Shown here: one piece after another, positions 4,799-44,199 of the stretch
Layout: each line of letters starts with the position of its first letter
Numbering within the stretch: the first letter of the stretch is position 1
Source of the DNA: Bacteroidaceae bacterium
GTDB lineage: Bacteria; Bacteroidota; Bacteroidia; Bacteroidales; Bacteroidaceae
DNA: 44,446 nucleotides
Direction of reading: 5' to 3'
Assembly (NCBI GenBank): GCA_017447625.1
Contig: JAFSNB010000045.1
Coordinates: 1-44,446, forward strand
Position numbers and translations under genes: made by a program
Notes under the pieces: generated by a model
What the model was told of the DNA's origin: nothing
Seen by the model: only the letters and a program-made list of their open reading frames with translations
The model's database searches: none

Positions 4799-4838
4799 GT
4801 CTCCCCTCCCTCACGGGAGGGGTCTGGGGGTGGGTCTT
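4799..4838. repeat. GC palindromic element, copy a (intergenic)
   Basis: The sequence has the arms CTCCCCTCCC and GGGAGGGG around TCAC, followed by CTGGGGGTGGGTC. It is the reverse orientation of the copies at 16484-16521 and 23856-23892, and almost identical to them. It ends 7 bases before the rseP ATG, so as RNA its hairpin would sit on the start region. Confidence 0.85.
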
Positions 4839-4845
4839 TCCAGTC

Positions 4846-6276
4846 ATGAATATATTCCTAATCAAAGCGTTTCAGCTAATCCTGTGTTTCAGTTTCCTCA
4901 TAGTCTTGCATGAGGGCGGTCATTTCTTCTTTGCCAAACTCTTCAAGACCAGAGTGGAGAAGTTCTACATGTTCTTCAACCCATGGTTTCATCTGTTCTC
5001 CACAAAGGACAGGTGGTTCTCAAAACTATTCCCGAAAGTGGCTGCAGGCGAGACCGAGTACGGAATCGGCTGGATTCCCCTGGGCGGATACGTCAAGATC
5101 TCCGGAATGATAGACGAGAGCATGGACACCGAGCAGATGAAACAGCCCGTGCAGCCCTACGAGTTCCGTGCGAAACCCGTCTGGCAGCGTTTCCTCATCA
5201 TGATTGGCGGCGTGCTGGTCAACTTCCTGCTCGCCTTGATCATCTACGCTATGATCCTGTTCACGTGGGGTTCCGACTCCCTGCCTATGAAGTCCATCAC
5301 CAATGGCTTCTCCTACAATGAGATGGCGGAAGCCGTCGGTTTCCGTGACGGAGACATTCCGGTGAAAGCCGACGGGAAGCCTATCGAAGAGTGGAACGGA
5401 ACCGTATATCGCACTATATCCGAGGCAAAGACCATCACGGTTCTGCGCGACGGCAAGGAGGTGACTTTGAATATGCCCGAAGAAGGGCTCAACCTGCTCG
5501 AGATGATCAATCAGGAGCCGCGATTCCTCGTGGCTAACGTGCCGGCGGTTATTGACACGGTTCTGCCCGAGACCCCGGCCTCAGCAGCCGGAATCCTCAG
5601 CGGCGCACGCATCCTGGCCATTGACAACCAGCCCGTAATGTGGTGGGGCGATTTCGATAACATCATGGGGCGCAAGGCCGACATTCTCGCTGCCGACTGC
5701 TCCCACGAGGACAGCGTAAAGCTCCGCAGCCTCACCATAACATTTGCAAACCCTGAGCAACTGGCAGCTGCCACGACGTCAGACTCAATCGCATCAACGA
5801 CCTTGACGATAACTCTTGACGAAGACTACAAGATCGGTTTCCTGAAGAAGTCTATCTTCGATTCCTACAAGACAGAGCACCATGACTATGGCTTCTTCGC
5901 CAGCATCCCGGCTGGCATAACCTACGGCTGGGAGACTCTGAAGGGCTATGTCTCCGACCTGAAATACATCTTCACGAAACAGGGAGCCAAGAGCGTAGGC
6001 TCGTTCGGCACCATTGGCGACCTCTTCCCGGCAGCCTGGAACTGGCAAGCCTTCTGGAACATCACGGCCTTCATATCCATTATCCTTGCCTTCATGAACA
6101 TTATTCCTATTCCGGGACTCGATGGTGGTCACGTCTTCTTCCTTCTCGTAGAGGCCGTCACACGCCGTCCGCCATCGGAGAAGTTCATGGAACGCGCCCA
6201 GATGGTTGGAATGATATTGCTCTTCGCCCTGATGGGTCTGGCCATATTCAACGACGTCGTCAAGTTCCTGTTCTAA
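4846..6276 (+). CDS. rseP: RIP metalloprotease RseP (site-2 protease)
   Basis: This inner-membrane zinc protease cleaves transmembrane substrates such as anti-sigma factors and signal-peptide remnants. The first membrane segment carries HEGGH (22-26), the HExxH zinc site. The other active-site element, NIIPIPGLDGGH, with the third metal ligand, lies near residue 425 in a C-terminal membrane helix. The central periplasmic part (about 150-330) has two PDZ-like domains, for example TPASAAGILSGARILAIDN. The 476 residues are slightly longer than the E. coli enzyme, as is usual in Bacteroidetes. No clear ribosome binding site is visible; a GC palindrome is directly upstream. Confidence 0.94.
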   Translation: MNIFLIKAFQLILCFSFLIVLHEGGHFFFAKLFKTRVEKFYMFFNPWFHLFSTKDRWFSKLFPKVAAGETEYGIGWIPLGGYVKISGMIDESMDTEQMKQPVQPYEFRAKPVWQRFLIMIGGVLVNFLLALIIYAMILFTWGSDSLPMKSITNGFSYNEMAEAVGFRDGDIPVKADGKPIEEWNGTVYRTISEAKTITVLRDGKEVTLNMPEEGLNLLEMINQEPRFLVANVPAVIDTVLPETPASAAGILSGARILAIDNQPVMWWGDFDNIMGRKADILAADCSHEDSVKLRSLTITFANPEQLAAATTSDSIASTTLTITLDEDYKIGFLKKSIFDSYKTEHHDYGFFASIPAGITYGWETLKGYVSDLKYIFTKQGAKSVGSFGTIGDLFPAAWNWQAFWNITAFISIILAFMNIIPIPGLDGGHVFFLLVEAVTRRPPSEKFMERAQMVGMILLFALMGLAIFNDVVKFLF

Positions 6277-6285
6277 TGCGACCGC

Positions 6286-6323
6286 AAAATCCTAAAATCC
6301 TAAAATCATTAAATCCTAAAATA
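6286..6323. repeat. AT-rich tandem word repeat (AAATCCT type)
   Basis: Four imperfect copies of AAATCCTA fill most of the 54-base gap between rseP and the POT transporter gene. This is another locus-specific word of the same style as those at 4716, 19958 and 40456. Confidence 0.7.
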
Positions 6324-6330
6324 TTCCGTC

Positions 6331-7857: not shown

Positions 7858-7861
7858 GATT

Positions 7862-8911: not shown

Positions 8912-8976
8912 TAACTAATGTGCGGTTTTGGCGTAATTTTTATATGTTTCTTGCATCGTGATTGAGAAATAATCAC

Positions 8977-8984
8977 TACTTTTG
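8977..8984 (+). promoter_or_regulatory. Bacteroidetes -7 box before the carboxyltransferase gene
   Basis: TACTTTTG matches TAnnTTTG, and a TTG lies about 20 bases upstream as a possible -33 element. The leader to the ATG at 9062 would be about 70 bases. Confidence 0.7.
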
Positions 8985-9061
8985 CTACCGAATTTGACAG
9001 ATAAAACAAAAAAGCTGTCAATAACAGACGCAAAAACGTAATCAAAACAGCATAGAAACGT

Positions 9062-10843: not shown

Positions 10844-10870
10844 TTGTCATTCGCTTAAACACAATATGAG

Positions 10871-10916: not shown

Positions 10917-10925
10917 TTCTCCTGT

Positions 10926-11501: not shown

Positions 11502-11507
11502 GGTCTC

Positions 11508-13169
11508 CTAAAACTCTGATGTAAAGTGGAACTTGATGTGCTCAAAGTCCTGCTGGGCCATAGTGAGCACGTAGGCGGAGTCGGCCAGAAATACATCGCG
11601 GCCCTCGATGTCATGGGCCATATACTGGTATTTGCGCTTCTTGAAATTCTCCAGCTGAGCCTCATCGTCGCTTTCTATCCAGCAGGCCTTATATAGACTG
11701 ACAGGTTCCCAACGGCACTTAGCACCATATTCATTCTCCAGACGGTACTGGATAACCTCGAACTGCAGTTGGCCAACAGTACCGATAATCTTGCGTCCGT
11801 TGAACTGGTTTACGAAGAGTTGGGCCACACCCTCGTCCATCAGTTGCGCGATGCCCTTCTCCAGCTGCTTCGTCTTCATCGGGTCGGCGTTCTCAATATA
11901 TTTGAACATCTCTGGAGAGAACGAAGGCAGACCGCGGAAATGCAGCTGCTCACCCTCGGTGAGAGTGTCGCCAATCTTGAATATGCCGCTGTCCGGCAGA
12001 CCCACTATATCGCCCGGCCACGCCTCGTCAATGGTGCTCTTTCGCTGCGCCATGAACTGAGTTGGCGAAGAGAAACGTACGGTCTTGCCCTGACGCACAT
12101 GGAGATAGGGGGCGTTGCGCACGAACTTGCCCGAGCACACCTTGCAGAAAGCGATGCAAGAACGGTGGTTGGGATCGATGTTGGCCGTTATCTTGAATAT
12201 GAAACCCGTGAACTTGGGCTCTTCGGGCTGTACGTCGCGCTCCTCGGCCTTGGTGGGGCGTGGTGACGGGGCTATCTCGACGAAACAATCCAGCAGTTCC
12301 TTCACGCCAAAATTGTTAAGTGCTGAACCGAAGAATACGGGGGCCACCTCAGCGTCCAGATACGCCTGACGGTCAAAAGCGGGATAAACACCTTCGATAA
12401 TCTCAAGGTCCTCACGCAGTTTGTCTGCGTCATCAGAACCGACGCGGGCGTCGAGTTCGTCAGAATCGAGCTCCACACTAACCTTCTCCGTCACCCTTTG
12501 TTTGTCGGGGGTGAAGAGGTTAAGGTTTCCCTCATAGATATTATACACGCCTTTGAAGCGCTGACCCTGATTTATAGGCCATGATAGCGGACGCACCTTG
12601 ATTTGCAGTTCCTCCTCCAGCTCGTCGAGCAGGTCAAACGGGTCTTTTCCCTCGCGATCCATCTTGTTGATGAAGACGATTACGGGAGTCTTGCGCATAC
12701 GGCAAACGGTCATCAACTTGCGCGTCTGCGCCTCCACGCCCTTGGCTCCATCCACAACAATTATGGCAGAATCGACAGCGGTGAGAGTGCGGAAAGTGTC
12801 CTCCGCAAAGTCCTGGTGACCCGGGGTGTCGAGGATATTCACCTTATAAGCCCCCTGTTGTCCCCCGGCGGGGGACTTGGTCTGTTCGTCAGATTGAGTG
12901 TCCCCCTCTGGTGGGCTAAAGGGGGTCGGCATATAGTCAAACTCCATCACGGAGGTAGTCACGGAGATACCGCGCTGCTTCTCAATATCCATCCAGTCGG
13001 AGGTGGCAGTCTTGCGAATTTTGTTGCTCTTCACAGCTCCGGCCACTTGAATCTGGCCGCCGAAGAGCAGGAATTTCTCGGTAAGGGTGGTCTTACCCGC
13101 ATCCGGGTGAGATATGATGGCGAATGTTCGCCTGCGTTCTATTTCTTGATTCACAATGATATTTGACAA
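11508..13169 (-). CDS. prfC: Peptide chain release factor 3, with palindromic-element insertion
   Basis: RF3 is the translational GTPase that removes RF1 and RF2 after termination. GTPase motifs: HPDAGKTT (21-28, P-loop), [12 protein letters not shown] (66-77, switch I), DTPGHQDF (114-121, G3) and NKMD (G4). Later domains, such as [19 protein letters not shown], match RF3 rather than EF-G. The 553 residues exceed the usual length of about 525. The excess is a hydrophilic insert at about residues 80-108 ([20 protein letters not shown] and following), exactly between switch I and G3. It is encoded by a GC-rich repeat (12849-12928). The frame stays open, so the gene looks functional. Confidence 0.94.
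12849..12928 (-). repeat. GC palindromic element, copy b, inside prfC
   Basis: Two short palindromes, TCCCCCGGCGGGGGA and a looser CCCCCTCTGGTGGGCTAAAGGGGG, lie about 30 bases apart and together encode the extra residues of RF3. Read on the minus strand, the peptide signs are SPPEGDT and SPAGGQQG, comparable to SPPRGE in queA and SPARQGE in radA. Confidence 0.75.
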
Positions 13170-13178
13170 TTTACAATT

Positions 13179-14084
13179 TTACAATTGGGCTATGCAGTCG
13201 CGGAGGCTGTCCTCCCAGTAGGGAACCTCGAAGTTGTATGTCTGCTTGAATTTGGTTTTGTCGAGCACGCTGTAATGGGGACGGGCGGCTGGCGTCGGAT
13301 ATTCGGCTGTGTGGAGTGGGCGCACACGACATGTGGTTATGCCGGCGATGCGGTGAATGGCCTTGGTGAAGTCAAACCAAGAGATGACACCCTCGTTCGA
13401 GAAGTGATAGATTCCGGGCTTTATGCCTTGGTTCACGGCTGCCATGATGGCGGTAGCGAGGTCGCGGGCGTAAGTGGGCGTACCTATCTGGTCGAAAATT
13501 ACACCAAGCTGTTCTTTCTCACGACCGAGACGGAGCATAGTCTTCACAAAGTTATTCCCGAAGCGACTGTATAGCCAGGCTGTGCGGATAATCAGCGCCT
13601 GGGGGTTGGCGGCCAGTACGGCCTCTTCGCCTGCAAGTTTCGTGCGGCCATAGACGGATGCAGGACAGGTCGGAGCCTCTTCTGTATATGGGGTGTGGGC
13701 TGTGCCGTCAAACACATAGTCGGTGGAAATCTGAATGAGGTGTCCGCCACGGGCTTCTATGGCCTCGGCGAGGTAGCCAGGTGCTGTGGCGTTCAGCAGA
13801 TGAGCCTTCTCGGGTTCGCTCTCGGCACGATCCACAGCGGTATATGCGGCGCAGTTCACGATAATATCTATGGCATTCTGCTCCACAAAGGCGAAAACGG
13901 CGGCGCGGTCGGTGATGTCAAGTGTCAAAACGGCGGGGGAACCGCCGGCCACAGTAGCGGCTGCAGCGGCTGCAACATCCGTAAATAACCAATTATATTG
14001 GGGGTATTGCTTTGCCTGTAGTTGCATCTCATTGCCCAGCTGACCACAGGCACCTGTAACAAGGATATTCTTTTTGTAATTCAT
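13179..14084 (-). CDS. rfbD: dTDP-4-dehydrorhamnose reductase
   Basis: RfbD (RmlD) reduces dTDP-4-dehydro-L-rhamnose with NAD(P)H, the last step of dTDP-rhamnose synthesis for surface polysaccharide. NAD-binding GACGQLG lies near the N terminus. The SDR catalytic STDYVFDG and YGRTK follow, then typical RmlD segments (WLYSRFGNNFVKTMLRL, GIYHFSNEG). I start at 14084 (MNYKKNILVTG); an upstream in-frame ATG at 14105 would add seven residues (MNYALSI) coded by an AT-rich word repeat. It is 9 bases upstream of prfC in a leftward operon. Confidence 0.93.
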   Translation of the reverse strand: MNYKKNILVTGACGQLGNEMQLQAKQYPQYNWLFTDVAAAAAATVAGGSPAVLTLDITDRAAVFAFVEQNAIDIIVNCAAYTAVDRAESEPEKAHLLNATAPGYLAEAIEARGGHLIQISTDYVFDGTAHTPYTEEAPTCPASVYGRTKLAGEEAVLAANPQALIIRTAWLYSRFGNNFVKTMLRLGREKEQLGVIFDQIGTPTYARDLATAIMAAVNQGIKPGIYHFSNEGVISWFDFTKAIHRIAGITTCRVRPLHTAEYPTPAARPHYSVLDKTKFKQTYNFEVPYWEDSLRDCIAQL

Positions 14085-14113: not shown

Positions 14114-14120
14114 TGACATT

Positions 14121-14150
14121 CTCCCCCCACCGGGGGGATTGAGGGGGGCC
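14121..14150. repeat. GC palindromic element, copy c (intergenic)
   Basis: TCCCCCCACCGGGGGGA, followed by TTGAGGGGGGCC, lies between the DUF4924 stop and rfbD. It is the second palindrome type, like those in pth and queA, and is adjacent to an AT word repeat. Confidence 0.8.
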
Positions 14151-16483: not shown

Positions 16484-16521
16484 GACCCACCCCCTTACCC
16501 CTCCCGTGGGGGAGGGGAGCT
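16484..16521. repeat. GC palindromic element, copy d (intergenic)
   Basis: GACCCACCCCC, then ACCCCTCCCGTGGGGGAGGGG. It starts at the first base after the glucokinase stop codon. It lies in the opposite orientation to copy e in pepT, 55 bases downstream, so the pair forms a long inverted repeat enclosing the pepT start. Confidence 0.88.
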
Positions 16522-16549
16522 ATTTACATAACAAGATTAGAATACTATT

Positions 16550-17830
16550 ATGGATAAAAACGAAACCATGCGCCAGCCTCTCCCCTCCCTCACGGGAGGG
16601 GTCGGGGGTGGGTCTCTTTTGAACCGTTTCCTCGACTACGTCTCCTACGACACACAGTCGAGCGAGGAGGCAGAGGGCTGCCCCAGCACACCCAAACAAC
16701 TCGTGTTCGCACGCCATCTGGCAGACTCCCTTGAAGAGATGGGGCTCGATGACGTCACCATGGATGACAACGGATACATCTACGCCACCCTGCCAAGCAA
16801 CGCCGAAGGCGATGTGCCAACTATAGGCTTCATCGCACACTACGACACCAGCCCCGATTGCTCCGGAGCCGACATTCACCCGCGAATAGTGGAAAACTAC
16901 GACGGCGGGGACATCATTCTGGACGAGGCTGAAGGCATTGTCACCTCGCCCAAGATGTTCCCCGAGATGCTCGACCACATCGGCGAAGACCTTATTGTAA
17001 CCGATGGCCACACGCTGTTAGGAGCCGATGACAAAGCAGGCATAGCCGAAATCGTCGAGGCCATGGCCTATCTCATGGCACATCCCGAAATCACTCACGG
17101 ACGCATACGTATAGCCTTCAACCCCGACGAGGAGATAGGCGCCGGAGCACACCTCTTCGACGTGGAGAAATTCGGCGCAGAGTGGGCTTACACCATGGAC
17201 GGCTCCGAAATAGGCGAACTGGAATACGAGAACTTCAACGCCGCCGCTGCTACAATCCGCATCCGAGGACTCAACGTGCATCCAGGCTATGCCAAGGACA
17301 AGATGCGCAACGCCTGCCTCATCGCCACCGAGTTCGCAGACGCCATGCCAAAGGACGAAGTGCCCGCACGCACCGAAGGTTACGAGGGCTTCTATCACCT
17401 CACCGGCATACGTGCCACCGTGGAAGAAGCCACCCTCAGTTATATCATTCGCGACCACGACCGCCAGCGCTTCGAAGAGCGCAAGAACTTCGTGGCCGAC
17501 CTCGTAGCCGTATTCGAGGAACGCTATGGCGAGGGTATCGTTGAGGCTGACATCCGCGACCAGTATTATAACATGAAACAGCAGCTCGAAGGCAAGGACC
17601 ACATCATCGACATAGCCCGCCGAGCCATCGAAGAGGCTGGCATGGAATGTAAGGTCAAGGCCATACGCGGCGGCACCGACGGCGCCCAGCTCTCATTCAA
17701 AGGTCTCCCCTGCCCCAACATATTCGCCGGCGGCCTCAACTTCCACGGCCGTCACGAATTCGTCCCCATTCAGTCCATGCAGAAAGCGATGCAAACCGTC
17801 ATCAACACCTGCCGCATCGTAGCAGAATAG
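16550..17830 (+). CDS. pepT: Peptidase T (tripeptide aminopeptidase) with element-encoded N-terminal insertion
   Basis: PepT is a cytoplasmic M20-family zinc peptidase that removes the N-terminal residue of tripeptides. Metal-site segments are present: [11 protein letters not shown] (first His and Asp), [12 protein letters not shown] (bridging Asp), [10 protein letters not shown] (catalytic and metal Glu), and [10 protein letters not shown] near the end. The family body starts at [15 protein letters not shown]. Residues 10-22 ([13 protein letters not shown]) are coded by a palindromic element. The protein has 426 residues against the usual 405-410. A start at a non-ATG codon after the element (TTG near 16619) cannot be excluded. 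Confidence 0.93.
16577..16616 (-). repeat. GC palindromic element, copy e, inside pepT
   Basis: The arms CTCCCCTCCC and GGGAGGGG around TCAC are followed by CGGGGGTGGGTC. It is nearly identical to copy a before rseP and is the inverse of copy d. It is read through in frame as codons 10-22 of pepT. Confidence 0.88.
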
Positions 17831-18179: not shown

Positions 18180-18232
18180 CAACATTTTCGCGATTTATGC
18201 AATATTGAGAAGCAAAAAAATCGCACTTAATA

Positions 18233-18298
18233 CCCTTAAACTTCTTAAACCTCTTAAACTCTTAACCCAACTCCCCCTCCGGGGGCAGGGGGGCTTAT
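18233..18298. repeat. AT word repeat plus GC palindromic element, copy f
   Basis: Four to five copies of CTTAAAC run to about 18268. They are followed by CTCCCCCTCCGGGGGCAGGGGGG, whose right end overlaps the pth stop codon (18295-18297). This is the same AT-word-then-GC-palindrome order as at 4716-4838. Confidence 0.8.
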
Positions 18299-19032
18299 TG
18301 AGTCTTCGCTCTGCGGTTCAGCTCGTTCATGGCCATCTGGATACCGGCGAGACAGAAGGTTTTGATGGCGGCGGCAGCTACTTTGGTGCGCTCGGGGATA
18401 AGTTCTTCCTGCTCAGGGGGGAACTGGCTGAGGACGTAATCCACCTGCTGTCCGGGAAAGAAGTCGTTGCCTACGCCAAAACGGAGGCGGGCATACTGCT
18501 GGGTGCCGAGTATCTGAGCTATGTGCTTCAGACCGTTGTGACCAGCATCGCTGCCGCCGGGTTTCATTCGCATCTGGCCGAAGGGCAGGGCGATGTCATC
18601 CACACAGATGAGGAGATGGGAGAGCTCAATCTTCTCTTGCTGCATCCAGTAGCGAACGGCATTACCGCTCAGGTTCATGAATGTGCTGGGTTTGAGCAGG
18701 ATGAGTTGACGGCCCTTGACGCTGATACGAGTTACAAAGCCGTAGCGCTTATCCTCCCATACGACGACCCCCCCCCCCCGGGCTTTCTCCCCCCCACGGG
18801 CTTTCTCCCCCCCACGGGGGGAGTCAGAGAGGGGCCCAGAGAGGGGCTTAGCTGCTGAAGCTGCAAGGGCATCTACGATGCGGAAACCAATGTTGTGGCG
18901 CGTGCCTTCGTAATCAGGGCCTATGTTCCCAAGGCCGACAATGAGAAATTTTTCCATAGGAGAAGACTCTTCGGTAGATTGAGGAGTTTTGTCTTTAGCA
19001 AATAGTTTACGCAGGAAGGAAAACATGTGCAA
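18295..19032 (-). CDS. pth: Peptidyl-tRNA hydrolase with repeat-encoded internal insertion
   Basis: Pth releases peptides from peptidyl-tRNA and is essential in most bacteria. Family signs: [20 protein letters not shown] with the catalytic His, [13 protein letters not shown] with the active-site Asn, DDIALPFG with the Asp, and [15 protein letters not shown]. The ORF has 245 codons; a second start at 18957 ([10 protein letters not shown]) fits the usual N terminus. Family members normally go straight from the first helix to the WEDKRYGF-like strand. Here about 33 residues ([20 protein letters not shown] and following) are inserted by a GC-rich repeat containing a run of 12 C. The frame is intact in this sequence. 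Confidence 0.9.
18768..18846 (-). repeat. GC palindromic element, copy g, with tandem duplication and 12-C run, inside pth
   Basis: The plus strand shows 12 consecutive C (18768-18779) and two tandem copies of a 17-base unit GGGCTTTCTCCCCCCCA. Next is the palindrome CTCCCCCCCACGGGGGGAG with TCAGAGAGGGGCCC, and a further AGAGAGGGGC copy. The core matches copies c, j and l. The duplicated unit gives the repeated peptide GGEKAR. Confidence 0.85.
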
Positions 19033-19938: not shown

Positions 19939-19957
19939 CCGCATAAATCAAGGGAAT

Positions 19958-20015
19958 TTGAACATTGAACATTGAACATTGAACATTGAACATTGAGCAT
20001 TGAACATTGAACATT
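19958..20015. repeat. Tandem heptamer repeat (ATTGAAC)
   Basis: Eight near-perfect tandem copies of the 7-base word ATTGAAC (one reads ATTGAGC). The exact tandem repeat suggests that copy number can change by slippage. It lies in the presumed leader of the 20099 gene. Confidence 0.9.
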
Positions 20016-20017
20016 AA

Positions 20018-20090
20018 GCTGCGCGCAGCATAATTATGAATTAAGACGTATTGATGAGCGAAGTCGAATAATTATGAATTAAGAATTAGA
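20018..20090. repeat. Core element with 15-base direct repeats, copy 1
   Basis: A GCTGCGCGCAGC palindrome is followed by TAATTATGAATTAAG (20031-20045), a 23-base core (20046-20068; starts ACGTA, contains TGAGCGAAG, ends CGAA), and an exact second copy of TAATTATGAATTAAG (20069-20083). Two related copies are at 38284-38340 and 39766-39818. Confidence 0.85.
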
Positions 20091-23000: not shown

Positions 23001-24199
23001 AAGAGCACTCGCTCATGCAGCACCTCTGCGTCTATGTCAAAGGAGCCGACGTCTATGCCAAAGCCATCTCGCCCACGGACGACGCGCTGATTTCCATCCG
23101 TTCAATAGGCCGAGAGCGCCAGAACGCAACAATCACCTACGTGAAGAACGGCAAGACGTTCACTACCCGGCAGGCTATGGAGCCGGACGGAACCTATCTC
23201 GTCACCTTCGACGACGAGAAGCTGCAAGTGAATCTGGTGAACGAAGCGCAGACGGAGACGTGGAAGGACGTAACAGCACTCCTGATAGCAAACCCTAATT
23301 TCGAGGAGGACAACACCTGGGGAACTACTGGCAACATCACCCTCAACGGTGTGGCATACAACCCATGCTACACCCAAAACGTGACACCCGCCAGCAACCA
23401 GTATCCCCAAGTGCTGCCAGTGGCAGGCTGGACGGCAGAAAACGGGCTGACCGCCGCTTCCAACTTCGCCCTCCTCTACTCCATGCCCTACAGTTTCACT
23501 CAGTACTGCGTGAGCCCCAGCAACCTCGGCAACAGCGCGAGCATAATGGCAGAACCAGCTGCATTTGCCGACAGTTGCCACGCCCGATGCCTCTCTGTCC
23601 TCAACTCGTGGACCAGCGGTACGAACGCCATCAGTCAGGAGGTGCAGTTGCCTTACAGCGGCCGCTACCGCCTCACCTTCGACATGCGCTATGCCTGCGC
23701 CAACGAGAGCCGCCGCACCGCCCCAAACGTCATCACGACCTCGGGCGGCAACATCAACACCGCCCTCTGCGGACTGGTCATTGACGGAGAAGAACTATAC
23801 GCCCCCTACCCCTCCGCCCCCGACATCTGGGAGGAGCAAGTGATAGAGTTTGAAGGACCCACCCCCAACCCCTCCCGTCAGGGAGGGGAGCTAGCTGACG
23901 CGCTTCCTGTTACAATTCGACTCGGTCTGAACACATCTGCCAGTCAGGGAGCTGCAAACAATACCCGCCTCTATATTGATAACCTGCATCTCTATTACCT
24001 TCAGAACGATGCAGACGGCATCGAAGACATGAACTCAGAGAATAAAACCCTTAGATCTTTCCCACAACAGGAGTTCTCCCCACAACGGGGGGAGTCAGAG
24101 GGGAACCCTATAACATACGACCTCTCCGGTCGTCCCATATCTTCCACTATCAAAGGCTTACATATAGTAGCCGGGAAAAAACATATTTTAATTGAATAA
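20099..24199 (+). CDS. Very large secreted protein, probable polysaccharide-active enzyme
   Basis: A 1366-residue protein with a signal peptide (LLCSLAVAVATHMSA, cleavage after residue 22). The N-terminal region (about 28-205) and C-terminal region (about 1080-1285) are similar jelly-roll, carbohydrate-binding-like modules, each opening with a NPSFE/NPNFE phrase and containing GWT. Between them is a long helical domain (about 225-660, with ENGWEADILAATLGLYPND and NHNYFHTSYQN) and then beta-rich segments. This layout resembles toroid-plus-sandwich polysaccharide lyases or hydrolases, but I cannot assign a family. The end (ITYDLSGRPI...GLHIVAGKKHILIE) resembles tails on secreted Bacteroidales proteins. 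Two palindromic elements are read in frame near the C terminus. Confidence 0.75.
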   Translation: MTYKLSSLLCSLAVAVATHMSAQTDVTSLYLSNPSFEVATLGNQVTNQNDGLRGWELSALTGWTTTNPGTQLLITADCFTDNNFGKTAIADGQYALYQRVGWTTAASTVSQVTQSIPAGEYQLTFRTKAFYANSATSSATARVVAGGKTLGSQTFSFVQGNVGCMTSREWTEQKVKFTVTTPAALTISIDLTWQSGGSCIAMDDFRLISVPEGTNAIEIIGGRETDITSPTEGVITHTFTDEATMMNDLLQMLANSMTYAKNIWFDCAAPNSVNETCGFFKANSAGNSNEDGVRTNADFSMICAFINKYARGKVTLPTGVTWDEVKAMAMKSLIFGYSTHKANKLKVTSNNAYWGSTATNDAVWESSLWAMSLAYASYFLADELSSTQKNYIYKMLKAECNYELNRSIPTGYAGDTKAEENGWEADILAATLGLYPNDALATQWFNRLREFAINSYSQVDDANDRTVIDPDYDQKTVANLYRGANLYEDFTLQNHNYFHTSYQNVVIQELGEAALALKLFQGDSQQWKTNALMHGNKAVMDNVLAWLALADGELAMPNGNDWSMFLFDQITSYSTLACFLRDPDALLLENMAYKYIKARQQTTTDGSWLLNSDIGPRRMGVEGHRVMMTYLMHLAASTADLQPTTWETFLDEHMDARRLTTQNIIRAASRDRFITFSWSDGLKSYTGYFADTTPDRNKIVCPFKANNTGNLLGWYNVSGKGTNATAVTAGIYKMKDNAFTMNGTLNTNDATLQNRFVLAATEGNAVIYMNRVKALADATISGRRGGLLAISTDPFMRTKRTLYHAGGRIQADGTQLSELASPWVNIDNSVGVVTVGGTGSIGFGDRALSNSIQMSKLYPLYSNANESVKKDKTVDRSAVIYYSRVDSAATAALQKGVVSLAEQLPETWNGLIAPDPDGTRYLLLANFEGKSKNKAELKDITFEEGAPVFGSETTILDGKASATFAIDEEHSLMQHLCVYVKGADVYAKAISPTDDALISIRSIGRERQNATITYVKNGKTFTTRQAMEPDGTYLVTFDDEKLQVNLVNEAQTETWKDVTALLIANPNFEEDNTWGTTGNITLNGVAYNPCYTQNVTPASNQYPQVLPVAGWTAENGLTAASNFALLYSMPYSFTQYCVSPSNLGNSASIMAEPAAFADSCHARCLSVLNSWTSGTNAISQEVQLPYSGRYRLTFDMRYACANESRRTAPNVITTSGGNINTALCGLVIDGEELYAPYPSAPDIWEEQVIEFEGPTPNPSRQGGELADALPVTIRLGLNTSASQGAANNTRLYIDNLHLYYLQNDADGIEDMNSENKTLRSFPQQEFSPQRGESEGNPITYDLSGRPISSTIKGLHIVAGKKHILIE
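23856..23892 (+). repeat. GC palindromic element, copy i, inside the 20099 gene
   Basis: GACCCACCCCC, AACCCCTCCC, then GTCAGGGAGGGGAG. It is almost base-identical to copy d at 16484 and inverse to a and e. It encodes GPTPNPSRQGGEL at about residues 1253-1265, inside the C-terminal carbohydrate-binding-like module. Confidence 0.88.
24073..24108 (+). repeat. GC palindromic element, copy j, inside the 20099 gene
   Basis: TTCTCCCC, ACAACGGGGGGAG and TCAGAGGGGAACCC, the second palindrome type with a slightly decayed left arm. It codes FSPQRGESEGNP at about residues 1325-1336, in the linker just before the C-terminal tail. Confidence 0.8.
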
Positions 24200-35711: not shown

Positions 35712-38252
35712 ATGAGATTTTTGCACATTTTCCTCCTTTCCGTAGCTCTGTTTTCATTTTCCGCACAGAGTAACGCCCAATCAACCGACAACACAAAGCA
35801 GTCTGCCGAAGTTCTGGACATGATTGTGAAAGTGAATAACTACTGGCAAGCAAACCACTCGCCCTACGTCCGGGCCTTCTGGGACCACGCTGCCTATCAC
35901 ACCGGCAACATGGAGGCCTACCGTCTGACAGGGCGCCCAGAGTGGTATGCCTACACCGACACTTGGTGCCGCCACAACGAATGGAAGGGTGCCAAGAGCG
36001 ACGACATCCGCAAATGGCGCTACAAGACATACGGTGAAGGTGACGATTTCGTGCTTTTCGGCGACTGGCAGATTTGTTTCCAGACATATATAGATATGTA
36101 CAATCTCGTGCCGGCTCCGTACAAAGTGGCACGTGCCATCGAGGTAATGAGCCACGAATGCTCTATGGAGGAGACGCATTTCTGGTGGTGGGCTGATGCC
36201 CTCTACATGGTTATGCCCGTTATGACAAAAATGTACCAGCTCACAGGAGAAGTGAAGTATCTGGACAAACTTTATGAGAATTTCCTTTGGAGCGACAGCC
36301 TTATGTACGACCGCAAGGAGCAGCTCTATTATCGCGACGCGAAATACATTTATCCAAAAGTCAAGACGGCTTGCGACGAGGGCAAGAGCTTTTGGGCACG
36401 CGGCGATGGATGGGTGCTGGCTGGTCTTGCCAAGGTGCTGGCAGATATGCCACAGGATTATTCCCACAGGGGTATCTTCATGCAGAGATTCAAGGAACTG
36501 GCAGAGGGAGTGGCACGTGTGCAGCGCCCCGACGGATATTGGAGCCGTTCGATGCTTTGCGAGGACGACGCACCTGGTCCTGAGACTTCTGGAACAGCCT
36601 TCTTCACCTACGGATTGCTTTGGGGCGTGAACCACGGTTATCTGGATCGCGATCAATATAAGCCAGTTATAGACAAAGCATGGAATTATCTGACTAAGAC
36701 AGCCCTGCAAGCAGACGGGAGCATCGGTTTCGTTCAGCCGATCGGTGAAAAACCAGACCCGACGAAAACCGTGGATGCCCACTCTCAGGCTCCCTTCGGT
36801 ACAGGTGCTTGGCTGCTGGCCGCCTGCGAAATGGTACGTTATCTGAACGGCTCGGTCGTCCCGAACTCAAGCATCATAAGCAACAGCATTTTCCACCACA
36901 CTCCGGGAACAGCTACAGTCACTTTCCCGATCAATGGCGGAACATCAACGGCCTTCACAGGTGCACCTACTGCCGTAAATCCGCTGCTGCGCTCCACGTC
37001 ACACGAGGGTTTCCTCAACTTCACAGTTAAGAATCCGACACAGGACCTTATCCAGCAGGTAGTTGAGCTCACCACCATGGACGCAATCCGCGCTAAGGGC
37101 GTGGCTGTGGCCCGTGAGTTCTTTATTCTTGATCAGGACCGCTACGAGATTCCTTATCAGATTACGCGCGACGGCAAGGTGCTTGTCCTGGCTACCGTTC
37201 GTCCGGAATCCTCTATCATTCTTTCCATATATCAGGGTCAGCCCCAAGACTATGTCCTCACAGCTAACGGACGCATATATCCTAACCGCCAGGAGGATCT
37301 GGTTTGGGAGAACGACCGCGTAGCATGGCGTTTCTATGGACCAGCTGCCCATAAGAGCATGAACAAGAGTTCCTACGGCTTCGATACTTTCGTAAAGAAC
37401 ACCTCCTATCCCATTCAAGATCAGCTCTACAACAACGAACTGACATCTTATAAAGTGAACGACAAGATGAAGAAGATAGGCCGTGGCAACACTTGGAACG
37501 AGGTGCATCGTGGTTATACCTATCACCGCAATCACGGTCTTGGCATGGATGCCTACACCGTCGGAGCTACCCTCGGAGCAGGCGCAGCCGCCTTGGTCAA
37601 CGGCAAAGAGCTGGTCTATCCTCAATACTATGAGAAGGCAGAAATCCTTGAAAACGGTCCCCTGCGCTTCTGCGTTCGTATGTCTTTACCGAAGCAGAAA
37701 ATCAACGGTCTCGGATCTGATTCTATCAGAGAAGTACGCCTAATAACTCAGGACTGCGGTTCACATTTCGCCCGCGTGGAGGTGACTTACGAAGGTCTTA
37801 ACGCCGAAACACCCGTCTGTGCCGGAATCGTTGTTCACGAGAAAGCTCCGAAGGCTTATACGATGAATAAGGACGAAGGCTTTATCACATACGCCGAACC
37901 GATGGATCACCCCGAGACGATGAACGGTGAGCACTTCCTCGGAGTATTTATCCCCAAAGAAGCTCCCGCAGAACAGACATCGGGCGGTTTCACGAAGAAA
38001 ATCAAGAAATTAGGCTCTAAGCTATTATCCGGAGGAGCAAAAGTCGAATATAAGGCTCTGCCAGAGAAGCGTGACACAGGCATCGGGCACGTTCTCATCT
38101 ATTCCGCCTACAAACCTGGACAGCCTTTTGTATATTACACAGGCTCTGCTTGGAGTCTCTATGACGTTCCCACTCGTGCCATCTGGCAGGAAACACTACG
38201 CCATGAAGCATTAATATTGCAGCAAGGGCTCATTGTAGAAAGTAAAAAGTAA
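35712..38252 (+). CDS. GH105-type unsaturated uronyl hydrolase fused to DUF4861
   Basis: An 846-residue secreted protein with a signal peptide (LLSVALFSFSAQSNA). The first half (about 30-385) is a GH105/YteR-like alpha6/alpha6 barrel: WDHAAYHTGNMEAY, the catalytic-Asp region THFWWWADALYM, FWARGDGWVLAGLAKVL and SGTAFFTYGLLWG. The second half (about 400-840) matches DUF4861, including DTFVKNTSYPIQDQL and GLGMDAYTVGATLGAGAAAL. GH105 enzymes remove the 4,5-unsaturated uronic acid left by pectin or ulvan lyases. A role in pectin (rhamnogalacturonan) use is inference; no SusC/D pair is in the window. The last codons (VESKK) are made of a repeat word. Confidence 0.88.
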   Translation: MRFLHIFLLSVALFSFSAQSNAQSTDNTKQSAEVLDMIVKVNNYWQANHSPYVRAFWDHAAYHTGNMEAYRLTGRPEWYAYTDTWCRHNEWKGAKSDDIRKWRYKTYGEGDDFVLFGDWQICFQTYIDMYNLVPAPYKVARAIEVMSHECSMEETHFWWWADALYMVMPVMTKMYQLTGEVKYLDKLYENFLWSDSLMYDRKEQLYYRDAKYIYPKVKTACDEGKSFWARGDGWVLAGLAKVLADMPQDYSHRGIFMQRFKELAEGVARVQRPDGYWSRSMLCEDDAPGPETSGTAFFTYGLLWGVNHGYLDRDQYKPVIDKAWNYLTKTALQADGSIGFVQPIGEKPDPTKTVDAHSQAPFGTGAWLLAACEMVRYLNGSVVPNSSIISNSIFHHTPGTATVTFPINGGTSTAFTGAPTAVNPLLRSTSHEGFLNFTVKNPTQDLIQQVVELTTMDAIRAKGVAVAREFFILDQDRYEIPYQITRDGKVLVLATVRPESSIILSIYQGQPQDYVLTANGRIYPNRQEDLVWENDRVAWRFYGPAAHKSMNKSSYGFDTFVKNTSYPIQDQLYNNELTSYKVNDKMKKIGRGNTWNEVHRGYTYHRNHGLGMDAYTVGATLGAGAAALVNGKELVYPQYYEKAEILENGPLRFCVRMSLPKQKINGLGSDSIREVRLITQDCGSHFARVEVTYEGLNAETPVCAGIVVHEKAPKAYTMNKDEGFITYAEPMDHPETMNGEHFLGVFIPKEAPAEQTSGGFTKKIKKLGSKLLSGGAKVEYKALPEKRDTGIGHVLIYSAYKPGQPFVYYTGSAWSLYDVPTRAIWQETLRHEALILQQGLIVESKK

Positions 38253-38340
38253 TAAGTAAAAAGTAAAAGGCTCAGCGCAGCCTAATGGTCACGTACTGTT
38301 GAGCGAAGGCGAAAAATGGTCAATGGTCAATGTTCAATGA
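38239..38340. repeat. AT word repeats and core element, copy 2
   Basis: AAAGTAA-type words (38239-38270) overlap the end of the GH105 gene. Then come CTCAGCGCAGCC, AATGGTC (38284-38290), the 23-base core (38291-38313), and AATGGTC again (38315-38321) with further tandem AATGGTC/AATGTTC copies to 38340. The core differs from copies 1 and 3 at only a few bases. Confidence 0.85.
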
Positions 38341-38346
38341 TTTAAG

Positions 38347-39744
38347 GTGGCAAAGGATAAGATAATGTATGTGTGCGACAACTGCGGACAGGAAAGTGCG
38401 CGGTGGTTGGGAAAATGTCCTTCATGCGGACAATGGAACACTTTTAAGGAGATAAAGACCGCCTCCTCCCCTGCCCGTCAGGGAGAGAGAAAGCCCTTGA
38501 TGACAGGAAAGACCGAAGGTGGCACTTCTGCATCTCGCCCCACTCCTCTTTCGCAAATCCAAACTGAGGCAGAAGTACGCTTCGACATGGACGATGAAGA
38601 GCTGAACCGCGTCCTTGGCGGCGGATTAGTTCCAGGAAGCCTGGTACTCCTGGGCGGCGAGCCAGGAATTGGCAAGAGCACGCTGGTCCTGCAGACCGTG
38701 TTGCGTCTCAAAGACAAGAAGATTCTTTATGTCAGCGGTGAAGAGAGTGCCAGACAGCTGAAGATGAGGGCGGAGAGACTTATTAAAAGAGAATCTCTGC
38801 ATTCCGACCTGTTAGTGGTATGCGACACTTCGCTTGAGGCCATTTTCGACCACATCTCGGAAACACAGCCCGACCTCGTGATAATCGATTCTATCCAAAC
38901 CATTTACACGGAGACGGTAGAATCCTCATCCGGCTCGTTAGCTCAAGTTCGCGAATGTGCGCAGCAACTGCTTAAATTCGCCAAGAGCGGCGGACCAAGC
39001 ATAATCCTCATCGGACATATTAATAAGGAAGGAACAATTGCTGGCCCGAAGGTGCTTGAGCATATCGTGGACACCGTGCTCCAGTTCGAGGGCGACCAAC
39101 ATTACACCTACCGCATCCTTCGCTCTCAGAAGAACCGTTTCGGCAGCACATCTGAACTGGGTATTTATGAAATGCGTCAAGACGGTCTCCGTCCTGTCTC
39201 CAACCCCAGCGAGCTACTGATGACAGACAATCACGACGGGCTTTCAGGTGTGGCCATTTGCGCTGCTATAGAGGGTGTGCGGCCGTTCCTCATTGAGACA
39301 CAGGCGTTGGTGAGCACAGCTGCTTACGGCACAGCTCAACGCCAGGCCACGGGTTTTGACTACCGCCGTTTGAATATGCTGTTGGCGGTATTGGAGAAAC
39401 GTGTCGGTTTCCGCATTGCAGCTAAGGACGTGTTTGTAAACATTGCAGGCGGCCTTCGTGTCACCGACCCCGCTATGGATCTTGCTGTGATTGCGGCCAT
39501 CCAAAGCAGCGCGGTGGAGATTCCAATAGATGCCGACACTTGCGTATGCGGCGAAGTGGGTCTGAGTGGCGAGATTCGTCCCGTAGCCCGCATGGAACAA
39601 CGTGTTGCCGAGGCTCAGAAGCTTGGTTTCCGCCGAATAATTATCCCCTCATACAACTTGAAGTCAATCAACCCCAAACTATTCAACATAGAAATTGTCC
39701 CCGTCCGCAAAGTTCACGATGCAGTCAGGGAAATCTTCGGTTAG
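38347..39744 (+). CDS. radA: DNA repair protein RadA (GTG start)
   Basis: RadA is a RecA-like ATPase that helps branch migration and processing of recombination intermediates. Zinc finger CDNCG...CPSCG (10-27), Walker A GGEPGIGKST (99-108 region), the RadA-specific KNRFGSTSELGIYEM and a C-terminal Lon-like domain (VNIAGGLRVTDPAMDLAV) are present. The start is GTG at 38347, because AKDKIMYVCDNCG matches the family opening; an ATG at 38365 is an alternative. A short palindromic element is read in frame at about residues 40-47, in the linker between zinc finger and ATPase. The protein has 465 residues; 450-460 is usual. Confidence 0.94.
   Translation: MAKDKIMYVCDNCGQESARWLGKCPSCGQWNTFKEIKTASSPARQGERKPLMTGKTEGGTSASRPTPLSQIQTEAEVRFDMDDEELNRVLGGGLVPGSLVLLGGEPGIGKSTLVLQTVLRLKDKKILYVSGEESARQLKMRAERLIKRESLHSDLLVVCDTSLEAIFDHISETQPDLVIIDSIQTIYTETVESSSGSLAQVRECAQQLLKFAKSGGPSIILIGHINKEGTIAGPKVLEHIVDTVLQFEGDQHYTYRILRSQKNRFGSTSELGIYEMRQDGLRPVSNPSELLMTDNHDGLSGVAICAAIEGVRPFLIETQALVSTAAYGTAQRQATGFDYRRLNMLLAVLEKRVGFRIAAKDVFVNIAGGLRVTDPAMDLAVIAAIQSSAVEIPIDADTCVCGEVGLSGEIRPVARMEQRVAEAQKLGFRRIIIPSYNLKSINPKLFNIEIVPVRKVHDAVREIFG
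38464..38489 (+). repeat. GC palindromic element, copy k, inside radA (decayed)
   Basis: CTCCCCTGCCCGTCAGGGAG resembles copy i with one arm base changed and a shortened right end. It codes SSPARQGER. The resemblance is clear in the centre, weak at the ends. Confidence 0.6.
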
Positions 39745-39762
39745 CCTAATCCTATGCGCTAG

Positions 39763-39818
39763 CCCAATTATGACGTACTGATGAGCGAAGACGAATAATT
39801 ATGAATTATGCATTATGA
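39763..39818. repeat. Core element with direct repeats, copy 3, supplying a start codon
   Basis: AATTATG (39766-39772), the core (39773-39795), then AATTATG (39797-39803) and further ATGAATTATGCATTATGAATT words. The ATG of the following HAD gene (39815) is the last word copy. GCGCTAGCC just upstream corresponds to GCGCAGCC in copy 2. Confidence 0.85.
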
Positions 39819-40450: not shown

Positions 40451-40455
40451 AAGCT

Positions 40456-40496
40456 AAAGGTTAAGGTTAAGGTTAAGGTTTAGGTTAAGGTTAAAA
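40456..40496. repeat. Tandem hexamer repeat (GGTTAA)
   Basis: Six tandem copies of AGGTTA, one altered to GGTTTA, lie between the HAD stop and the end of the convergent xth gene. The last copy overlaps the xth stop codon (40491-40493). Confidence 0.9.
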
Positions 40497-41246: not shown

Positions 41247-41267
41247 TGTTCTGGCATATTTTTGCGC

Positions 41268-41275
41268 CAAAAGTA
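41268..41275 (-). promoter_or_regulatory. Bacteroidetes -7 box for xth
   Basis: TACTTTTG on the minus strand, 21 bases before the ATG at 41246. It is closely divergent from 41298-41305, so the upstream elements of the two promoters must overlap. Confidence 0.7.
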
Positions 41276-41297
41276 GCAAAAATTCGGTAATTATTAC

Positions 41298-41305
41298 TAC
41301 TTTCG
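41298..41305 (+). promoter_or_regulatory. Bacteroidetes -7 box for the DUF2027-Smr gene
   Basis: TACTTTCG differs from TAnnTTTG at one position. It lies 22 bases before the ATG at 41328. Confidence 0.5.
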
Positions 41306-41327
41306 CGCCGAAAAAATCAAATAGGAC

Positions 41328-42455: not shown

Positions 42456-42480
42456 AAATTAAAAGTGCTGTTCAGAAAGC

Positions 42481-43803
42481 ATGAATCCCCGCAACATAAA
42501 GATAGCCGATTACACCTATCCGTTGCCAGACGAACGGATAGCCAAATATCCGCTGGCGGAGCGCGATGAGTCCAAGCTCCTCATCTACGACCACGGACAT
42601 ATCTCCCATAAGCATTTCCGCGACCTTCCCAGCTTGCTGCCAGAAGGCTCGCTTCTGGTTATGAACAACACACGCGTCATTCAGGCACGCCTGCATTTCC
42701 GCAAGACCACAGGAGCGCTCATCGAAGTCTTCTGTCTTGAGCCAGCGCGTCCACGCGATTACGCCCAGATGTTTCAGCAGACAGGCACCTGCGAATGGCA
42801 ATGCCTGATTGGTAACGCAAAGAAATGGAAAGAAGGAGCACTCACACGTGACATCTCCGTTGACGGCAAACCCGTCCGCCTCGTCTGTGAGCGCGTAACG
42901 GCAGACGCTCACACTTCATCCGACCGGCAGCACCAATCCATATCTGAAGGCTCCGCAGGCAGCCTTGTCATACGCTTCTCTTGGGACAATGATTCCGTCA
43001 CATGGGCCCAAGTGCTGGATGCTTGCGGCGAACTGCCCATTCCGCCCTATCTAAACAGGGCCACAGAAGAGAGCGACCTGCGCACCTACCAGACAGTCTA
43101 TTCAAAGATCAAGGGCAGCGTGGCCGCCCCCACAGCCGGTCTCCATTTTACGGAACGAGTCCTCGCTGAAGTTGACCGCAGGGGAATTGAGCGCTGCGAA
43201 CTGACATTGCATGTGGGAGCCGGAACCTTCAAGCCAGTGAAGAGTGAACTTATCGAAGGTCACGAGATGCATTCCGAGTGGATCAGCGTGCCGCGCTCTG
43301 CCATCGAAGCCCTACTGCGTCACGGAGGCGAGTGCACAGCTGTTGGAACCACCAGCGTACGAACCCTCGAAAGCCTCTACTACATCGGACTCCGCATCCT
43401 CCAGAATCCCGACGTTTCTCCCAACGACCTCCACATCCGCCAATGGGAACCGTACGAATCCGAAGAACAACAATCAACTGTCAACAGTCAAAGGCTCTCC
43501 CCCCCACGGGGGGAGATGGAGAGGGGCCTCAACCCTTCCCAGTCCCTTCAGGCTATTCTGGATTGGATGAATCGGCAGAATATCTCAGCCCTCACGACAA
43601 CCACACAAATCATTATTGCGCCGGGTTATAACTATCATATTGTGCGACGAATCATCACCAACTTCCACCAGCCGCAGAGCACACTTCTTCTGCTCGTTGC
43701 AGCCTTCGTTGGAGAAGAACATTGGCGAGACATATACGACTACGCCTTAGACCACGACTTCCGTTTCCTTTCCTACGGCGACTCCTCAATATTGATACCC
43801 TAA
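42481..43803 (+). CDS. queA: S-adenosylmethionine:tRNA ribosyltransferase-isomerase QueA with repeat-encoded insertion
   Basis: QueA transfers and isomerises the ribosyl part of SAM onto preQ1-tRNA to give epoxyqueuosine at the wobble base. Typical segments are YPLPDERIAKYPLAERDESK (13-32), KGSVAAPTAGLHFTERVL, LHVGAGTFKPVK and TTTQIIIAPGYNY with ITNFHQPQSTLLLLVAAFVG. The length of 440 residues exceeds the usual 340-410, partly from about 20 residues (331-350, QSTVNSQRLSPPRGEMERGL). These are coded by an AT word repeat joined to a GC palindrome. The insertion precedes a family helix (SLQAILDWMNRQN) in a surface region. No preQ1 riboswitch-like leader is visible. Confidence 0.94.
   Translation: MNPRNIKIADYTYPLPDERIAKYPLAERDESKLLIYDHGHISHKHFRDLPSLLPEGSLLVMNNTRVIQARLHFRKTTGALIEVFCLEPARPRDYAQMFQQTGTCEWQCLIGNAKKWKEGALTRDISVDGKPVRLVCERVTADAHTSSDRQHQSISEGSAGSLVIRFSWDNDSVTWAQVLDACGELPIPPYLNRATEESDLRTYQTVYSKIKGSVAAPTAGLHFTERVLAEVDRRGIERCELTLHVGAGTFKPVKSELIEGHEMHSEWISVPRSAIEALLRHGGECTAVGTTSVRTLESLYYIGLRILQNPDVSPNDLHIRQWEPYESEEQQSTVNSQRLSPPRGEMERGLNPSQSLQAILDWMNRQNISALTTTTQIIIAPGYNYHIVRRIITNFHQPQSTLLLLVAAFVGEEHWRDIYDYALDHDFRFLSYGDSSILIP
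43470..43530 (+). repeat. Composite AT word plus GC palindromic element, copy l, inside queA
   Basis: CAATCAACTGTCAACAGTCA (43470-43489) is an AT-type word repeat like the TTGACAGT tract just after the gene. It is directly joined to CTCTCCCCCCCACGGGGGG and AGATGGAGAGGGGCC. The GC part is nearly identical to copies c and g. The whole composite is in frame. Confidence 0.85.
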
Positions 43804-43813
43804 AAGCCCCCTA

Positions 43814-43859
43814 GTTGACAGTTGACAAGTGACAAGTGACAGTTGACAAGTGACAGTTG
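43814..43859. repeat. Tandem word repeat (GTTGACA / GTGACAA)
   Basis: About six copies of 7-base words GTTGACA, AGTGACA and variants begin 11 bases after the queA stop. The word matches the one inside queA at 43470-43489. Confidence 0.85.
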
Positions 43860-44199
43860 CCCTGGGTACAGGTTGTATGGGGAATGTTAGCTCCGAAGGG
43901 GCCGAAGGGGCAAAAGTGCTAAAGCACGACGTTTTCATTGCACCCCAGTCGGTCATTGGGTCAATTATCCGAAGGGTTTTCGCTAAAACCCCATAGGGTT
44001 TGGGGCAAAACCCCATGGACTTCTTGAATCATGATGCAAGGGTTCTTGCGGAGGCAGAGTGCCGTCATTTATCCCAAATGGAAGAGAGCATTCGTCGCTC
44101 TGATGAACGGTTTGGGATTATCCCTTATTGCTTTACGAGTAGGAGGCTAAGCCCCCCCTATGGCCCCCTATATAGGGGCCTAAGGGGAGGGGCTGTCGC
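43860..44199. other. Repeat-rich region without confident gene
   Basis: It holds direct copies of GAAGGGGC (about 43894-43910), a hairpin GGGTTTT-CGCT-AAAACCC (43974-43991) and the direct repeat AAAACCCCAT (43985-43994 and 44007-44016). A 67-codon ORF (44000-44203, starting MGQNPMDFLNHDARV) crosses into the GC palindrome at 44143. It resembles no family I recognise, and I do not call it a gene. Confidence 0.5.
44143..44190. repeat. GC palindromic element, copy m (intergenic)
   Basis: GGCTAAGCCCCCCCTA, TGGCCCCCTATATAGGGGCC and TAAGGGGAGGGGCT form nested inverted repeats. The centre GGCCCC-CTATA-TAGGGGCC is distinct, but the outer arms follow the general design. Confidence 0.65.

What the first reader, a model, noticed from the sequence alone, without database searches (positions are those of the whole stretch)
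4799..44190. Dispersed GC-rich palindromic elements inserted in frame in at least six protein genes
Thirteen sites carry closely related palindromes of about 26-80 bases. Type A: GACCCACCCCC plus CCCTCCC-GTGA-GGGAGGG (4799, 16484, 16577, 19113, 23856, decayed at 38464). Type B: CTCCCCCC-AC-GGGGGGAG plus AGAGGGGC (14121, 18768, 24073, 43494; looser at 12849, 18267, 44143). Seven lie inside coding frames of prfC, pepT, pth, the 20099 gene (twice), radA and queA, each time leaving an open frame and adding Pro/Gly/Arg-rich residues (SPPRGE, SPARQGE, PNPSRQGGE). These coincide with length excess over the family in the housekeeping genes. This parallels Rickettsia palindromic elements, which are known to insert in frame in protein genes. 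Copies occur in both orientations, which suggests mobility.
Basis: partly seen in the sequence, partly recalled or inferred. Interest (0 to 1): 0.88.

Follow-up and report, generated by a model that had tools for sequence, protein, structure and literature searches.

The report
Palindromic repeats spliced into housekeeping genes
A rumen bacterium and many of its relatives carry short GC-rich palindromic DNA repeats that sit mostly at gene edges but also inside core genes, where they appear to add extra amino acids without breaking the reading frame, much as other repeats do in Rickettsia.

Summary
Eight of the 13 sites fit three related repeat families (A1, A2, B), each a conserved tail plus a GC hairpin; a ninth is a degenerate B. 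In 840 kb of this genome (33%) there are 109 such elements against 1 in reversed sequence. 46 lie inside 38 predicted open frames, among them MetH, UvrA, TopB, TsaD, Tgt and PepT. The pth insert is absent from five congeners compared at DNA level; the prfC insert is absent from close relative G077, and the same loop holds other in-frame palindromes in other species.
Placement is ordered: within 20 nt after a stop codon the tail faces the gene 26:0 (27:2 within 60 nt), and close pairs are outward-tail 18, inward 0, tandem 6. The exact A-type pattern occurs in 62 of 399 family genomes, 10 of 30 genera, with no control match.
It resembles Rickettsia palindromic elements and intragenic REPs, but is not GTAG-tagged, and nothing links it to RAYT. 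No mobilising enzyme was found.
Verdict: a real, new variant of a known kind. Corrections: radA has no length excess over congeners, queA little, pepT's start is ambiguous, orientation is ordered.

The parts
4804..4836 (-). A1 element, intergenic, 9 nt before the start codon at 4846, tail towards the gene
12849..12932 (-). in-frame insert in prfC (residues 80-107, just before the DTPGH motif of the GTPase domain) holding a GC palindrome of another family
   Evidence: absent in solved RF3 and in G077, shared with G033; other palindromes at the same site in G138, G107, G130, G011
14121..14150 (-). B element (2 errors), intergenic, 1 nt after a stop codon
16484..16516 (+). A1 element directly after the stop codon of the 15476-16483 gene; outward-tail pair with 16583
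   Evidence: shared with G077
16583..16614 (-). A1 element in the pepT N-terminus: [27 protein letters not shown]
   Evidence: shared with G077, absent in G129 and G033; an in-frame TTG follows, so the start is ambiguous
18760..18849 (-). in-frame insert in pth (edges approximate) containing a full B element (18805-18836)
   Evidence: absent in G077, G138, G129, G033, G107; another insert at the same site in L020
19117..19149 (-). A2 element, intergenic, 10 nt after a stop codon
23856..23887 (+). A1 element in frame in the 20099 gene (GPTPNPSRQGGE)
   Evidence: G077 has DYSPSAQGGED there, perhaps a decayed copy
24073..24108 (-). degenerate B element in frame near the C-terminus of the 20099 gene
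   Evidence: not found by the regex
38460..38490 (+). decayed A1-like palindrome in the radA linker (SPARQGER)
   Evidence: GC hairpins (stem 7 or more) in this linker in 6 of 29 congener loci, 7 hairpins in all
43497..43528 (-). B element in frame in a variable loop of queA (LSPPRGEMERGL)
   Evidence: absent in G077
18267..18294 (.). GC-rich hairpin downstream of pth, family not established
   Evidence: not found by the regex
44143..44190 (.). GC-rich hairpin, family and context not established

Best explanation
These are short, non-autonomous, REP/RPE-like palindromic repeats: a conserved tail of about 12 nt, a short linker, a GC hairpin with a stem of about 7-9 bp, and a 3' tail. They often occur as inverted pairs with tails outward, 39-184 nt apart. 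SHOWN: copy number, anatomy, orientation near gene ends, patchy distribution across species, copies in open frame in core genes, presence/absence between related species, palindromes recurring at the same loops, and hairpin-bearing, eroded-looking and plain starts of TsaD among congeners. INFERRED: copies spread by an unidentified enzyme acting in trans on tail plus hairpin. Most land or survive at gene edges. A copy in a gene survives if its length keeps the frame and the site is a tolerant loop or terminus; the scarcity of stop codons helps. It is then translated as a Pro/Gly/Arg-rich segment and erodes into ordinary codons.
For: Copy number: 143 v 12; 109 v 1 in 840 kb. Patchiness: 120 of 139 genomes of the genus (own included) have a place for the 18-base palindrome, 0 to 103 in the others (this pattern also catches sister palindromes); exact A pattern in 62 of 399 family genomes, 10 of 30 genera, control 0 in all 399 rows. 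In genes: 46 of 109 elements in 38 predicted genes; the family match spans or flanks the element in 8 of 10 internal hosts scanned; all 10 N-terminal hosts scanned have a Pfam family. Presence/absence: pth insert absent in G077, G138, G129, G033, G107; prfC insert absent in G077, shared with G033. Recurrence: prfC loop 18-49 residues in 30 loci with GC hairpins in 13 of 30 loci; TsaD N-terminus with a 7-8 bp hairpin in 5 of 30 loci (L216, L217, L220, L223, L227), eroded-looking (such as L219, L221) or plain (such as L228, L234); radA linker hairpins in 6 of 29 congeners. Orientation: 26:0 within 20 nt after stops, 16:3 within 30 nt before starts; pairs within 250 nt +- 18, -+ 0, tandem 6. Open-frame fraction 0.81 v 0.71 for random 33-mers.
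Against: No mobilising enzyme identified. No clean empty site with target-site duplication: pth looks replaced rather than simply inserted. radA linkers have near-constant length with or without a palindrome, and queA's loop is variable anyway. The pepT/16484 spacer is 132 of 133 identical to G077 while 300 nt on either side are 255 and 246 of 300, which transposition alone does not explain. prfC insert shared with G033 but not G077 needs loss, recombination or parallel gain. Some of the shortest prfC loops (L169, L170) also hold a short GC hairpin, and the hairpins in L164 and L171 may be unrelated. Within 60 nt the orientation bias is softer: 27:2 after stops, 18:8 before starts. Gene calls in the 840-kb sample come from my own crude caller, which only returns open frames. 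Translation was not observed.
Confidence: 0.75

Rival explanations
1. The palindromes are chiefly selected mRNA/DNA hairpins at gene ends (3' stabilisers, ribosome-stalling or translation-insulating structures); in-gene copies are by-products of recombination.
For: Ordered orientation at gene ends: 26:0 within 20 nt after stops. In E. coli, REPs within 15 nt of a stop codon are reported to stall ribosomes (passages of PMC12306157). The pepT/16484 spacer is far better conserved with G077 than its flanks.
Against: Patchy species distribution within one genus; 46 of 109 inside predicted genes; different palindromes at the same loop in different species. A selected function and mobility do not exclude each other.
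Confidence: 0.3
2. They are REPs mobilised by a RAYT (Y1 tyrosine transposase).
For: Y1_Tnp genes exist in the genus: 62 of 139 genomes match PF01797 at E<=0.001, 53 over the cut-off. Pair arrangement and closeness to stop codons resemble REPs (PMC3733652).
Against: No PF01797 match in the own assembly, which is 73% complete. Of 10 loci inspected, L116, L117, L119 and L123 have CCAGCC...GGCTGG palindromes on both sides of the gene, tagged GTAG (one side ATAG in L119); in none of the ten does an A1, A2 or B hairpin adjoin the gene, the nearest similar hairpin being about 1.2 kb away in L125. Copy number is not linked to strong Y1_Tnp hits: medians 8 v 6, p 0.30; 3 of 17 genomes with 40 or more copies have one.
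Confidence: 0.08
3. Each inverted pair is a MITE: terminal repeats (tail+hairpin) around a spacer, moved by an unrelated transposase; single elements are remnants.
For: 18 outward pairs v 0 inward; paired inserts inside prfC of G107 and G138.
Against: By eye the spacers look unrelated, and pairs mix A1, A2 and B. No matching insertion sequence was looked for.
Confidence: 0.25
4. Chance GC hairpins or slippage products without a shared origin.
For: Low-complexity G/C runs; sites 18267 and 44143 fit no family.
Against: Controls 12 v 143, 1 v 109, 0 in 399 rows; conserved tails and 3' tails at unrelated sites.
Confidence: 0.02

Closest known systems
Rickettsia palindromic elements (RPE) and Wolbachia palindromic elements
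   Same: Palindromic repeats in several families, inserted in frame in core genes, recurring at the same locus of orthologues; a QueA (tRNA ribosyltransferase-isomerase) gene is a host in both (passages of PMC3767692).
   Different: RPEs are described as 100-150 bp; these are shorter GC-rich tail+hairpin units in rumen Bacteroidota, often in outward-tail pairs. No sequence relation was tested.
GTAG- and CGTC-tagged REPs, including intragenic REPs
   Same: Short hairpins, dimers, closeness to stop codons, intragenic copies including uvrA; CGTC REPs are reported in Bacteroidetes and without a transposase (PMC3733652 sections 4 part 1, 15, 16).
   Different: Tail is GACYC or GGCCCC, not GTAG or CGTC; no Y1_Tnp in the own assembly; 46 of 109 copies (42%) inside predicted genes.
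MITEs / BIMEs
   Same: Non-autonomous inverted-repeat units in intergenic regions, mosaic pairs (general knowledge, recalled).
   Different: No parent insertion sequence known; spacers look unrelated.

Membership tests
Rickettsia palindromic elements | palindromic repeat inserted in frame within unrelated protein genes | tested here: met
   translation itself not observed
Rickettsia palindromic elements | recurrent insertion at the same locus of orthologues | tested here: met
   prfC, TsaD, radA, pth
Rickettsia palindromic elements | sequence membership in one of the described RPE families | not tested
   no RPE sequence was compared
Rickettsia palindromic elements | length 100-150 bp | tested here: not met
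   regex match about 30-35 nt; by eye about 50-75 nt with 3' tails
GTAG REP | terminal GTAG tetranucleotide | tested here: not met
   tails are GACCC, GGACTC, GGCCCC; GTAG-tagged palindromes sit beside Y1_Tnp genes in congeners
GTAG REP | association with a RAYT gene | tested here: not met
   own assembly is only 73% complete
CGTC REP | terminal CGTC (or TGTC/CCTC), 8-9 bp stem beginning with AT pairs, CCA tail | tested here: not met
   stems are CCCTCCC or CTCCCCCC and tails differ; compared by eye
MITE | terminal inverted repeats shared with a full-length insertion sequence | not tested
   no insertion sequence search was made
MITE | target-site duplication | tested here: inconclusive
   relatives too diverged for clean empty sites
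Rfam RNA families | match at gathering threshold | tested here: not met
   0 matches in the window

The most novel reading that the evidence does not exclude
Part of the family is a portable gene start. A reversed A-type copy carries an A-rich leader with its own ATG (consensus about ATGNATAAAGANAATNNATCC...), so that on landing at a gene's 5' end it supplies the start codon and gives unrelated core proteins (TsaD, Tgt, a phage-integrase-family protein) related N-terminal peptides (such as M.KEN..SSQTHSAPSLTGRAGGES), the outer tail abutting the gene body.
Probability: 0.2. Interest if true: 0.85.

Novelty: new variant of a known kind. Interest (0 to 1): 0.62.

Why it matters
In-frame palindromic insertions are best known from Rickettsia and Wolbachia, where reduced genomes invite a drift explanation (recalled). 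Here the same thing appears on a large scale in rumen Bacteroidota with 139 genomes of one genus at hand, so hairpin-bearing, eroding and empty states of one site can be read side by side (TsaD, prfC). That makes the old idea that palindromic repeats seed new protein sequence directly testable. The ordered orientation at gene ends is a constraint on how such repeats insert or function. It also warns annotators: N-termini and loops of core enzymes in these genomes contain repeat-derived residues.

Tried and rejected
RAYT as driver: not supported. Rfam identity: none in the window. Does each species' pth palindrome match that species' dominant variant? One search had 7 of 12 genomes with a match, but its pattern was too narrow (it misses several of the pth copies themselves), so the test is inconclusive. 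Element-borne start codon: suggestive only; 8 of 18 leaders match the consensus at 7 or more of 10 positions against 11 of 433 other genes, but the consensus was drawn from the same leaders. Orientation count: the unmodelled 3' tail makes the 20-nt cut unfair to antisense copies after stops; with 60 nt the counts are 27:2 after stops and 18:8 before starts, so the first stays strong and the second is weaker. Some copies counted 'before a start' are N-terminal copies under (such as C35:62837). Literature: the eight paper searches listed no paper on such elements in Prevotella or Bacteroidaceae; only open-licence PMC papers were searched.
Full report
Setting. The window is contig C37 of a 2.56-Mb assembly of 46 contigs, 73% complete.

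Check of the observation. The 13 sequences are present. Eight of 13 sites fit a tail+hairpin regex with up to 3 errors; 24073 is a degenerate B, 38464 decayed, 12849 another palindrome, 18267 and 44143 unassigned. Whole-genome counts exceed controls: 143 v 12, 111 v 2. In 840,274 bp of own sequence there are 109 elements (A1 44, A2 36, B 29) against 1 in reversed sequence.

Placement. With a crude gene caller that returns only open frames (coding fraction 0.88), 46 of 109 elements lie inside 38 predicted genes: 14 near the N-terminus, 28 internal, 4 near the C-terminus. This is well below 88%, so many genic insertions are presumably lost. A second scan finds 18 A-type copies reversed between an ATG and a long ORF, six of which the caller had put outside genes. 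Near gene ends orientation is ordered: 26 sense and 0 antisense within 20 nt after a stop; 16 antisense and 3 sense within 30 nt before a start, the 3 also lying just after a stop. With a 60-nt limit the counts are 27:2 and 18:8. B copies inside genes are 13 antisense to 2 sense. Neighbouring elements within 250 nt are 18 outward-tail, 0 inward-tail and 6 tandem.

Host genes. Family searches name the internal hosts: PBP4-type carboxypeptidase, DNA topoisomerase III, trans-4-hydroxy-L-proline dehydratase, methionine synthase, a heavy-metal P-type ATPase, UvrA, an agmatine deiminase-like protein, an ABC-F/Uup-like protein and a dihydroxy-acid dehydratase. The matched stretches span or flank the element in 8 of 10; the PBP4-type protein has two matched stretches of which only one is located, and the tenth (1413 aa) has only a weak lectin match. 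N-terminal hosts include TsaD, Tgt, LptF/G, a phage-integrase-family protein, a thioesterase and a SusD-like protein. In that SusD-like protein and its unscanned neighbour the element sits in what looks like the signal peptide.

Comparison with relatives. Solved structures lack the prfC, pth, queA and pepT N-terminal segments. In DNA alignments with G077, G138, G129, G033 and G107, the pth insert is only in the window; L020 has another insert at the same place. The prfC insert is shared with G033 but absent in G077, the closest congener by queA and radA identity (81% and 90%). G138 and G107 carry outward pairs at the same loop, in frame. The pepT N-terminal A1 and its partner at 16484 are shared with G077; G129 and G033 have short starts. 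The 133-nt stretch holding both is 132 of 133 identical to G077, against 255 and 246 of 300 on either side. Across 30 prfC loci the loop runs from 18 to 49 residues; 13 of the 30 have a GC hairpin there, though L164 and L171 may be unrelated and L169 and L170 have a short hairpin in a short loop. Of 30 TsaD loci, five have a 7-8 bp hairpin in the N-terminal extension (L216, L217, L220, L223, L227), others look eroded and others have plain starts. radA linkers carry GC hairpins in 6 of 29 congeners but are 50-60 residues long in all 20 of 30 loci measured, which points to turnover at an old site rather than simple gain. queA's loop is 60-90 residues in 26 of 30 loci measured, 79 in the window.

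Spread. In the genus 120 of 139 genomes, own included, have at least one place for the 18-base palindrome, 17 of them 40 or more; this pattern also catches sister palindromes. The stricter tail+hairpin pattern occurs in 62 of 399 genomes of the family, in 10 of 30 genera, with control 0 in every row (only 34 of the 139 congeners were in that draw). The family is therefore older than the species but patchy.

Mechanism. The best reading is a non-autonomous repeat spread in trans; that step is inferred. RAYT is a poor candidate: the own assembly has no PF01797 match; of 10 loci inspected, four have CCAGCC...GGCTGG palindromes on both sides, tagged GTAG (one side ATAG in L119), and in none does A1, A2 or B adjoin the gene; copy number does not follow strong Y1_Tnp hits. 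Elements have more open frames than random 33-mers (0.81 v 0.71), which eases survival in genes but does not explain orientation. The orientation rule may reflect a function at gene ends, an insertion preference, or outward-tail pairs that bracket intergenic spacers; my data do not separate these.

Known kinds. I read sections 4 (part 1), 15 and 16 of PMC3733652: intragenic GTAG/CGTC REPs are known, including uvrA, and CGTC REPs occur in Bacteroidetes and are not associated with transposase genes. I saw passages of PMC3767692: RPEs recur at the same loci of orthologues, a QueA gene among them. I saw passages of PMC12306157 and PMC10969869. The present repeats work like RPEs but fail the GTAG and CGTC tags and the RPE length, so I file them as a new variant of a known kind.

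Limits. No structure was predicted (six tries, machine busy). Gene calls are approximate. No exact empty site was found. Translation is inferred from conserved domains on both sides and, for TsaD, from the lack of an in-frame ATG, GTG or TTG between the element and the conserved start (sequence).

Noticed in passing
L116, L117, L119, L123 (G046, G092, G138, G001): REPtron-like loci in the same genus: a Y1_Tnp gene with CCAGCC...GGCTGG palindromes on both sides, GTAG-tagged (one side ATAG in L119), unrelated to the palindromes of the finding.
   Followed up: partly
window 19944-20027, 4711-4788, 38239-38269; queA loop of L129, L139, L146: AT-rich short tandem repeats (such as TTGAACA) lie in intergenic spaces, and minisatellite-like repeats occur in frame in the queA loop of congeners.
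   Followed up: no
window 16484-16616 and G077:C7: The spacer with two A1 elements is 132 of 133 identical between window and G077 while 300 nt on either side are 255 and 246 of 300, as if conserved or recently exchanged.
   Followed up: partly
TsaD about residue 150 and RadA about residue 148 in many congeners (such as G018, G029; G092, G088): Protein matches split with a gap of about 70-140 nt between the pieces on one strand, suggesting further recurrent in-frame insertion sites.
   Followed up: no
L209:9840-11513 and 12520-14007 (C33:11432, 13926): Two neighbouring genes share one leader (NTFFRNLQKYLLPSLHGRG) whose end is palindrome-derived; one encodes a SusD-like protein.
   Followed up: no
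L115 about 18226-18357 (C24b): B-type clusters with repeated CTCCCCCC-ACGGG runs, also seen beside the window pth copy (18768-18837).
   Followed up: no
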